Source: Cavia porcellus (Eukaryota; Chordata; Mammalia; Rodentia; Caviidae). Taken from it: a stretch of 64,000 bases of DNA. A program made the position numbers and the translations under genes. This document shows, piece after piece, positions 14,959-20,922 of the stretch. Below the pieces are notes generated by a model. It was not told where the DNA came from. It saw only the letters and a list, made by a program, of their open reading frames with translations, and ran no database searches. Where the stretch lies: contig NW_026947506.1 of NCBI RefSeq assembly GCF_034190915.1, positions 14,135,501 to 14,199,500 on the forward strand. The letters run 5' to 3'. Position 1 is the stretch's first letter. Each line of letters starts with the position of its first letter.

Positions 14959-14998
14959 TGACTGTGAGAGTCGACCCCCCTGCTACAACCCCCTCCCC

Positions 14999-15146
14999 AG
15001 AGCGGAGAATGAAAGGGTTAACTCCCTAACTCCCCAGAGCGGGGAATGAAAGGGTTAACTCCCTAACTCCCCAGAGCGGGGAATGAAAGGGTTAACTCCC
15101 TAACTCCCCAGAGCAGGGAATGAAAGGGTTGACTCCCTAACTCCCC
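14999..15146 (+). repeat. four 37-bp tandem repeats in U3 (probable enhancer)
   Basis: The unit begins AGAGCGGGGAATGAAAGG and ends CTAACTCCCC. Copies 2 and 3 are identical; copy 1 has GGAGAAT for GGGGAAT, and copy 4 has CAGGGAAT and GTTGAC. Direct repeats in gammaretroviral U3 usually act as enhancers. The same array lies at 20376-20523 in the 3' LTR. Confidence 0.9.
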
Positions 15147-15357
15147 GGAGCTCTCAGAACAGAGCAGTAAAGAGTGCTTCACTCCCTAAACCTTTCCCAG
15201 GAGATAGTCAGAGCAGGGCCAAAAAGAATGTACTGTATAAACAGGACCAGGGAGCACCTGGCACTCTAAGGTCAACCCAAGACCCTCGGTCTCCATGGTT
15301 ACTCAGCCCCAGACCCTCAAATCAGCATTAGCCAGGTCCTGCGCCGCTCAGAATTAA

Positions 15358-15482
15358 CCAATGCGATTTGCTTCTGTAAACTTGCTTGCCTCCTGCGTGT
15401 ATCTTTAAAAACCCTGCACAAATTCCCCTCGGGGCCCCTCTGCACTTGTTTGCCTGAGGGACCCCATGCGCATGGAAATAAA
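15358..15482 (+). promoter_or_regulatory. LTR core promoter and poly(A) signal
   Basis: CCAAT at 15358, TTTAAAA at 15404 and AATAAA at 15477 are spaced as in a U3/R boundary. The transcription start is inferred to lie at about 15430-15445. Confidence 0.75.
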
Positions 15483-15548
15483 CTTTTTTTCCTCACCAAG
15501 AGTTGAGTCCTTGGGGTCTCTTTCCCTGCGGCGTCGGCCCTAACATCT

Positions 15549-15566
15549 TGGAGGCCCCACCGAGAT
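15549..15566 (+). other. primer binding site, tRNA-Gln type
   Basis: The 18-mer TGGAGGCCCCACCGAGAT starts 3 bases after the LTR. It is complementary to the 3' end of tRNA-Gln, with one apparent C-for-T difference from the usual TGGAGGTCCCACCGAGAT. It primes minus-strand DNA synthesis. Confidence 0.85.
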
Positions 15567-16099
15567 AGCACGTCTCACGGAAGGTGACCTCAACGGCTCT
15601 GCGGTGGGTGAGTACGACCGGTCGCTTCTTATTTTTACTCTGAGGATCAATCTACCGGTATTTTACGCCCCGAGCCAAACGGCTCCGGTCTAGGGGCAAT
15701 TTTTGTTACCTGTTTTTGTTATCTGTTCTCTGTTCTTGGGTGATCGGGGGACGCCCCACACGGTTTTCCGTGACTCACCGTCTGCGATAGGATTTTCCTA
15801 TCGGTTTGGGGCCCAATCTGTGGTCCGTCAGGGCCAATTCGGAGACACCCTCCGAGGTGACTCGTTTGGGGAATTTCATTCCCAATCTGTGGTCCGTCTG
15901 GGCCAATCTGGGGAATTTCATTCCCAATCTGTGGTCCGTCCGGGCCAATCTGGAGGCACCCCCTAAGGTGACTCGTTTGATGTGAAACTAATGCGTGAGA
16001 GTGAGGTGGCCGGCCTGTTTGTCCTGTGTGTTGTGACTGTTGTGATCGGTTATTTGTTGTGTCGCGCGTACGCTAACCACTCTTTGTCTTCAGAACACC
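15567..16099 (+). other. ERV leader with splice donor and internal repeats
   Basis: The untranslated leader should carry the packaging signal. A good splice donor, GG|GTGAGTA, lies at 15608. Three copies of a 'ccaatctgtggtccgtcnggg' unit start near 15812, 15881 and 15924, and a 'gaggtgactcgttt'-type unit flanks them twice. Structured leader repeats are common in gammaretroviral packaging regions. Confidence 0.65.
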
Positions 16100-16191
16100 A
16101 TGGGACAAATGACATCGTCCCCATTGTCCCTCACCCTCGACCATTGGTCGGAGGTTCGAGAGAGGGCTCACAATCTCTCCTTTCAGGTTAA
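15991..16191 (+). other. leader ORF with a membrane anchor (66 codons)
   Basis: An ATG at 15991 opens a small frame, itself open back to a stop at 15964. Residues 7-24 are strongly hydrophobic (AGLFVLCVVTVVIGYLLC), as in a type II signal anchor. It overlaps the start of gag in a different frame. Its place just 5' of gag matches where gammaretroviruses encode the glycosylated Gag leader, which is also a type II anchor. Here it is not in frame with matrix, so the parallel is positional, and translation is unproven. Confidence 0.45.
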
Positions 16192-19835: not shown

Positions 19836-19962
19836 GTTAAAAATTGACTAACTGTTTTAGCTTGCTTGTTTTGATTTTAATAACATTAATGCCGACCTTA
19901 CATGGCGGCTTTGGTCCCCCTGTAAGCAAAAAAAAAACCAATTGTTAAAGATCTTTTGTTTT

Positions 19963-19985
19963 AAAAAAAAAAAAAAAAGGGGGGG
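19963..19985 (+). other. A16-G7 tract, polypurine-tract-like
   Basis: Sixteen A then seven G residues lie about 350 bases 5' of the true polypurine tract. The A-then-G layout resembles a retroviral PPT, so it could be a vestigial or secondary plus-strand primer, or simply a slippage-expanded tract. Confidence 0.5.
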
Positions 19986-20050
19986 TCTCTGCGCCGCACT
20001 TAAAAAAAAAATGTTGTTTTTACACTGATCATACTGGGATTGTAAAAGAT

Positions 20051-20305
20051 ACAATAAAAAAGTTGAGAGAGAAAATCAGATCTCAAGAGCCCCCTTCAAA
20101 TAAAGCCAAAGTGTTCTCTTTCCGAGAATCAATTCTGCCCTATATCCTCCCTTTATTGAGACCCCTGGCCGGATTCATTATAGTCATGGCTATAGCCCCT
20201 TGCCTCATTAACCGAGTAACCCGGTTTGTAAGGGCTCAGATCTCTCAGGTAAAAGTTATGGTGCTACGTCAACAATATGACCCCTTACCTATACAGGACT
20301 TTTAG
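20051..20305 (+). pseudogene. ERV env remnant: transmembrane tail
   Basis: About 80 codons are open up to a stop at 20305. The hydrophobic span ILPLLRPLAGFIIVMAIAPC is followed by a basic, amphipathic cytoplasmic tail ending QQYDPLPIQDF, matching the Env TM membrane anchor and tail layout of gammaretroviruses. The surface subunit, fusion peptide and immunosuppressive-type region are missing, so it cannot mediate entry. There is no ATG at the start of the open frame. Its openness next to the shattered pol is notable. Confidence 0.8.
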
Positions 20306-20325
20306 GATTAAAAGTCATTGGAGAA

Positions 20326-20339
20326 ATAAAAGGGGGGAA
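20326..20339 (+). other. polypurine tract
   Basis: AATAAAAGGGGGGAA directly abuts the 3' LTR and would prime plus-strand synthesis. Confidence 0.9.
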
Positions 20340-20922
20340 TGTGAGAGTCGACCCCCCTGCTACAACCCCCTCCCCAGAGCGGAGAATGAAAGGGTTAACT
20401 CCCTAACTCCCCAGAGCGGGGAATGAAAGGGTTAACTCCCTAACTCCCCAGAGCGGGGAATGAAAGGGTTAACTCCCTAACTCCCCAGAGCAGGGAATGA
20501 AAGGGTTGACTCCCTAACTCCCCGGAGCTCTCAGAACAGAGCAGTAAAGAGTGCTTCACTCCCTAAACCTTTCCCAGGAGATAGTCAGAGCAGGGCCAAA
20601 AAGAATGTACTGTATAAACAGGACCAGGGAGCACCTGGCACTCTAAGGTCAACCCAAGACCCTCGGTCTCCATGGTTACTCAGCCCCAGACCCTCAAATC
20701 AGCATTAGCCAGGTCCTGCGCCGCTCAGAATTAACCAATGCGATTTGCTTCTGTAAACTTGCTTGCCTCCTGCGTGTATCTTTAAAAACCCTGCACAAAT
20801 TCCCCTCGGGGCCCCTCTGCACTTGTTTGCCTGAGGGACCCCATGCGCATGGAAATAAACTTTTTTTCCTCACCAAGAGTTGAGTCCTTGGGGTCTCTTT
20901 CCCTGCGGCGTCGGCCCTAACA
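20340..20922 (+). repeat. ERV 3' LTR
   Basis: 583 bp, identical by eye to the 5' LTR, including the four 37-bp repeats and their private variants. The flanking TGAC at 20923-20926 completes the target-site duplication. Confidence 0.97.

What the first reader, a model, noticed from the sequence alone, without database searches (positions are those of the whole stretch)
14963..20922. Provirus with identical LTRs but a wrecked interior: a recently mobile non-autonomous ERV
Seen: both 583-bp LTRs agree at every base I compared, with a perfect 4-bp TGAC duplication, primer site and polypurine tract. Pol is full of stops and most of gag, RT and env is gone. Known: LTRs are copied to identity at insertion, so identity means little time has passed. 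Inference: the defects predate insertion, and the element was packaged and copied by proteins of another virus, as for VL30 or ETn-like elements in mouse. The family and its helper in this species could be undescribed.
Basis: partly seen in the sequence, partly recalled or inferred. Interest (0 to 1): 0.85.

Follow-up and report, generated by a model that had tools for sequence, protein, structure and literature searches.

The report
Recently inserted, defective, APOBEC-edited retrovirus copy
A rodent-like genome carries a young retroviral copy that was already broken when it landed, and its DNA bears what look like the scars of a host antiviral enzyme acting before insertion.

Summary
LTRs 14963-15545 and 20340-20922 are identical at 583 of 583 bases, flanked by a TGAC duplication. 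The interior keeps scraps of MA, CA, RT, RNase H, integrase and TM. NC, protease, the first part of RT and SU matched nothing in 29 pieces tested.

Public proteins give three close relatives (88-94% identical). P0005 shares the window's out-of-frame stretches and stop, so part of the damage belongs to a lineage. One integrase stop is absent from P0001.

Differences are strand-biased: 20 of 21 single-step transitions are G/A, 16 of them G in the relative and A here. These lie in GXA triplets at 14 of 16 sites, against 28 of 112 unchanged G (p = 2e-6), the published mouse APOBEC3 footprint. With no difference between the LTRs, these changes predate insertion.

Best reading: a gammaretrovirus-like, probably non-autonomous element, mobilised in trans and edited by a rodent-type APOBEC3 during reverse transcription. 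No genome-wide copy count was possible; no helper was found. New member of a known kind.

The parts
14959..14962 (.). 5' copy of 4-bp target-site duplication TGAC
14963..15545 (+). 5' LTR, 583 bp, TG...CA ends, AATAAA at 15477-15482
   Evidence: identical to 3' LTR at 583 of 583 bases; AATAAA
14993..15151 (+). 37-bp x 4.3 tandem repeat in the LTR, enhancer-like by position (inference)
   Evidence: repeated at 20370-20528 in the 3' LTR
15549..15566 (+). primer binding site, tRNA-Gln type (17 of 18, recalled)
15567..16099 (+). leader, CpG-rich, with a 42-bp repeat (2.1 copies at 15867-15953 and a third, 69% alike, at 15798); candidate packaging region (inference)
   Evidence: no Rfam match
16100..16434 (+). 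gag MA remnant, in two frames
   Evidence: PF01140, E 1.1e-6 (below cut-off) and 3.9e-26; core protein p15, 1mn8
16435..17310 (+). AT-rich stretch, C-poor in part, of unknown origin; TACTAAC at 16438 and CAG/G at 16472-16475 look like a 3' splice site (by eye)
   Evidence: no retroviral or vertebrate family in the ORF pieces tested (one sub-threshold bacterial sigma-factor match taken as chance)
17311..17472 (+). stretch of unknown origin with a short ORF
   Evidence: no Pfam or PDB match
17473..17577 (+). gag CA, C-terminal scrap
   Evidence: PF02093 positions 163-197, E 8.5e-5, below cut-off
17696..17917 (+). RT connection region
   Evidence: PF17919 E 2.6e-10; RT structures 5dmq and others
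18098..18120 (+). 23-base A-tract inside pol
18131..18394 (+). pol piece whose out-of-frame stretches and terminal stop are shared with relative P0005
18313..18663 (+). RNase H remnant
   Evidence: PF00075 E 8.3e-5, below cut-off; 2hb5 E 2.7e-19
18807..19025 (+). possible integrase zinc-binding remnant
   Evidence: PF17921 E 0.015, below cut-off
19044..19834 (+). integrase remnant in two frames with several stops, one of which is absent from relative P0001
19949..20305 (+). env TM remnant; SU not found
   Evidence: PF00429 E 4e-19; P0009
20320..20339 (+). polypurine tract
20340..20922 (+). 3' LTR
20923..20926 (.). 3' copy of target-site duplication TGAC

Best explanation
A gammaretrovirus-like (class I) endogenous element that cannot make working Gag, Pol or Env. 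Its LTRs, primer site, leader and purine tract are present, so its RNA could be transcribed, packaged and reverse transcribed by the proteins of an intact relative (inferred). During reverse transcription, at the latest in the cycle that made this copy, a rodent-type APOBEC3 deaminated the minus strand and left G-to-A changes in GXA triplets, at least one of them a nonsense change (the pattern is shown statistically; the enzyme is inferred). The DNA then inserted with a 4-bp duplication so recently that the LTRs remain identical: under about 0.6-1.2 My at recalled rodent rates. Shown: structure, LTR identity, shared pol lesions, strand bias and context. Inferred: trans-mobilisation, the helper, the packaging role of the leader.
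For: LTR identity, TSD, PBS and PPT. Fragmented domains. P0005 (93%, 87 aa) shares out-of-frame residues at both ends of its match and ends at the same stop, while P0006-P0008 read the first of these stretches differently. 20 of 21 single-step transitions are purine against 309:284 opportunities, p = 2.3e-5. GXA at 14 of 16 G>A sites against 28 of 112 kept G, p = 2.2e-6, with the same direction in each codon position, Mantel-Haenszel z 4.98. Window-derived changes are G>A in 7 of 9. 9/545 interior against 0/1166 LTR, Fisher 3.2e-5. Mouse APOBEC3 context GXA (PMC2531183, passages) and TTC on the minus strand (PMC2041998, abstract and passages).
Against: No genome copies, helper or expression could be examined. 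Relatives are protein fragments (3 close ones), so silent changes are unseen and their species unknown. All 8 differences to P0009 are unpolarised. Direction among purine changes alone (16 of 20 G>A) has p = 0.09. Two of the 9 polarised G>A-type differences fall on the relatives' branch. Against the outer relatives P0002/P0006 the bias is milder: 20 G>A, 13 A>G, 9 C>T, 5 T>C, GXA 8 of 20 against 13 of 77, p = 0.03. The reference-free GXA test is weak: interior z 3.2 against 249 overlapping control windows with mean 0.92, sd 1.59, max 6.18, the top three over the 84-bp repeat array. A 5'-3' gradient is not established.
Confidence: 0.72

Rival explanations
1. The parent was intact or nearly so; deletions by template switching plus APOBEC3 editing in a single last cycle wrecked this copy. 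No non-autonomous lineage exists.
For: At least one stop is absent from a close relative and is a G-to-A type change; heavily edited single proviruses are published (PMC2041998, passages).
Against: P0005 shares the window's out-of-frame stretches and stop, so pol was already broken in a common ancestor that later gave at least two copies. That P0005 is another locus and not this one is inferred.
Confidence: 0.14
2. An older provirus that decayed in place, with LTR identity restored by gene conversion or created by assembly collapse of near-identical repeats.
For: Neither process can be excluded from one assembled sequence; dense stops are common in old copies (recalled).
Against: In-place decay is not strand-specific, yet only 1 of 21 single-step transitions is C/T and G>A sits in GXA. 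The TSD is perfect.
Confidence: 0.1
3. The G/A differences are RNA editing (ADAR) or errors in the relatives' reads, not editing of this copy.
For: The close relatives come from a source labelled lgn, read type not given; 2 of 9 polarised G>A-type differences do fall on the relatives' branch.
Against: Outgroup residues agree with the relative, not the window, at 7 of those 9; the integrase stop stands where P0001, P0003 and P0004 have Trp. That ADAR prefers other contexts is recalled.
Confidence: 0.04

Closest known systems
VL30 (mouse non-autonomous LTR elements)
   Same: No open gag/pol, identical LTRs in 42 of 86 full-length copies, PBS and PPT, RNA packaged into MLV particles (PMC4859993, passages)
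   Different: VL30 has no env; this element keeps a TM remnant. Sequence kinship was not tested.
Endogenous polytropic/modified polytropic MLVs edited by mouse APOBEC3
   Same: G-to-A strand bias, nonsense changes, TTC (plus-strand GAA) context, editing before integration (PMC2041998, abstract and passages)
   Different: Those proviruses are otherwise near full length (recalled); this one lacks most coding sequence.
IAPE-D with APOBEC3 traces
   Same: GXA context on genomic copies (PMC2531183, passages)
   Different: Different retroviral class (recalled).
GLN / MuRRS gammaretroviral ERVs of mouse
   Same: tRNA-Gln type primer site (recalled); gammaretroviral domains
   Different: The group holding GLN has 59 members, 3 with open gag, pro, pol and env (PMC3265301, passages). 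Sequence kinship was not tested.

Membership tests
Gammaretrovirus-like (class I) ERV | MLV-type MA, RT/RNase H, IN C-terminus and gamma-type Env TM | tested here: met
   PF01140, PF17919, PF00075, PF18697, PF00429; structures. First MA piece, Gag_p30 and RNase_H are below their curated cut-offs
Gammaretrovirus-like (class I) ERV | LTR pair, 4-bp TSD, tRNA PBS, PPT | tested here: met
   tRNA identity recalled
VL30-like non-autonomous element (works like) | no intact gag, pol or env frame but cis elements present | tested here: met
   longest + frame 135 aa
VL30-like non-autonomous element (works like) | several copies sharing the defects | tested here: inconclusive
   one relative shares pol lesions; no genome search answered
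VL30-like non-autonomous element (works like) | mobilised by another virus's proteins | not testable with these tools
   no bench or expression data
VL30 family membership | no env sequence | tested here: not met
   TM remnant PF00429 E 4e-19
APOBEC3-edited provirus | plus-strand G-to-A far above C-to-T | tested here: met
   16 G>A, 4 A>G, 1 C>T, 0 T>C among 21 single-step transitions
APOBEC3-edited provirus | enzyme-specific context (GXA for mouse A3) | tested here: met
   14 of 16 against 28 of 112; z 4.98
APOBEC3-edited provirus | gradient along the provirus | tested here: inconclusive
   G>A per codon 4/87 (RT/RNase H), 6/149 (IN), 6/81 (TM); no data for gag

The most novel reading that the evidence does not exclude
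An undescribed non-autonomous gammaretroviral lineage, carrying a captured AT-rich stretch in place of p12 and most of CA, is still moving in a rodent; each jump passes through APOBEC3, which edits the dispensable interior while the cis elements are kept, so an active helper should exist in the same genome.
Probability: 0.3. Interest if true: 0.6.

Novelty: new member of a known kind. Interest (0 to 1): 0.42.

Why it matters
Identical LTRs with a broken interior usually leave open when the damage arose. Here strand bias and sequence context date part of it to before integration, in a single copy, using only protein fragments of relatives. If confirmed, it points to recent helper-dependent retroviral activity and recent APOBEC3 pressure in this host's germ line.

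Tried and rejected
Viral contig scans with the integrase piece, an integrase alignment and an LTR motif found no relative; one scan of the prokaryote genome collection found none. An Rfam search of the leader gave no match up to E 5. Four short leader folds have z from -1.34 to 0.30 and the leader as a whole z -1.94, 3 of 100 shuffles folding as well. A GACG-loop motif of recalled gammaretroviral type occurs once in the window but is not the predicted fold, so it was dropped. Reference-free GXA profiling was positive in all seven interior segments tested, slightly positive in the LTR and negative in the leader, but not decisive against controls. Four contexts were tested: GA, GG and GAA first, GXA after reading; GA and GG are not significant in the close set. 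Naming the species from SINEs was not resolved.

Two of the 23 amino-acid differences (one two-step, one ambiguous, both in P0009) were left out of the 21 transitions. One search counts the ambiguous one as A>G, giving 5 there.

Full report
What is there. The element runs from 14963 to 20922. Its two 583-bp LTRs agree at every base and are bounded by TGAC on both sides. A tRNA-Gln-type primer site (recalled match, 17 of 18) follows the 5' LTR and a purine tract precedes the 3' LTR. The LTR holds a 37-bp tandem repeat of 4.3 copies; the leader holds a 42-bp repeat, 2.1 copies by TRF plus a third 69% alike. CpG o/e is 1.02 and 0.77 in the two 300-bp windows over the leader, against 0.10-0.11 in the flanks.

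Coding remains. Stop-to-stop pieces were searched apart. MA appears in two frames, so it is frame-broken. A scrap of CA is followed by the RT connection region, RNase H, IN and Env TM. Some Pfam matches are below the curated cut-off (MA first piece, CA, RNase H), and the IN zinc-binding one is weak (E 0.015). None of the 29 distinct pieces tested matched NC, protease, RT fingers/palm or SU. The stretch 17311-17472 matched nothing searched, and 16435-17310 gave only a sub-threshold bacterial match that I take as chance. The longest plus-strand frame is 135 aa.

Relatives. Three protein searches gave nine proteins (4, 4 and 1). Three are close: P0001 (IN, 94% over 149 aa), P0005 (pol, 93% over 87 aa) and P0009 (TM, 90% over 81 aa). 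P0005 agrees with the window in stretches that are out of frame relative to P0006-P0008, and ends at the same stop. P0006 also ends after an out-of-frame tail; by eye its frame breaks at a different place, so I count that as independent. P0001 and P0005 may lie on one 1,611-base contig, 93 bases shorter than the matching window span; this is not established. P0001 reads through where the window has one integrase stop.

Strand bias. Over 317 codons there are 23 amino-acid differences to the three close relatives. 21 are unambiguous single-step changes, all transitions: 16 with G in the relative and A here, 4 the reverse, 1 C>T and no T>C. Opportunities for purine and pyrimidine transitions are nearly equal (309:284), so 20 of 21 has p = 2.3e-5. 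Direction among purine changes alone is not significant (p = 0.09). With outgroups, 9 of the 15 differences in the P0001 and P0005 pieces fall on the window's branch (7 G>A, 1 A>G, 1 C>T), 4 on the relatives' and 2 are open; all 8 of P0009 are open.

Context. Published mouse APOBEC3 targets are GXA triplets (PMC2531183, passages) and TTC on the minus strand (PMC2041998, abstract and passages). Here G>A sites are in GXA at 14 of 16, against 28 of 112 kept G whose change would alter the residue (p = 2.2e-6); GAA gives 7 of 16 against 9 of 112 (p = 7e-4); GA and GG alone are not significant (p = 0.14 and 0.55). The GXA effect has the same direction in each codon position (p = 0.001, 0.014, 0.046; Mantel-Haenszel z 4.98). 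The reverse sites, where the relative has A, show 2 of 5 in GXA. More distant relatives show the same direction: GXA 8 of 20 against 13 of 77 (p = 0.03), and 20 of 38 against 16 of 77 (p = 7e-4); these sets overlap the same window sites and are not independent.

Timing. If the 9 window-branch changes in about 545 nonsynonymous sites had arisen after insertion, about 19 changes would be expected in 1166 LTR bases; none is seen (Fisher p = 3.2e-5). Strand-specific change of this kind can only precede integration, as PMC2041998 (abstract) and PMC2531183 (passage) state. The insertion is under about 0.6-1.2 My old at recalled rates.

Reading. The lineage was already broken in pol and then moved, so it needed proteins in trans; this step is inference and rests on P0005 being another locus. 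On top of that, this copy carries an APOBEC3-type footprint. Part of the stop load is therefore probably enzymatic and not slow decay.

Limits. The host genome search did not complete (11 of 11 tries), the close relatives are protein fragments of unknown species, and assembly collapse of the LTRs cannot be excluded. The host is taken as a rodent from ID-type SINEs (recalled) and the mouse-like footprint.

Noticed in passing
57979-59474: Older gammaretrovirus-like pol/integrase remnant on the + strand, about 25-48% identical to fetched relatives, with stops.
   Followed up: partly
32903-33073: Integrase-like scrap, 39% identical to P0002, E 5.6e-4.
   Followed up: no
7091-9759: Array of 84-bp units that looks like a C2H2 zinc-finger gene read on the minus strand (by eye; no family search).
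   Followed up: no
37212-37407 and 39611-39803: Direct repeat, 77.5% identical, with AATAAA: possible old LTR pair.
   Followed up: no
16435-17310: Stretch with C at 0.07 in 16763-17062 and a TACTAAC (16438) plus CAG/G (16472-16475) splice-like motif; origin unknown.
   Followed up: partly
18098-18120 and 19963-19978: Long A-tracts inside the element (three shorter ones too), the second followed by a G run.
   Followed up: partly
53640-53712 and 1632-1695: tRNA calls that look like ID-type SINEs rather than tRNA genes (by eye).
   Followed up: partly
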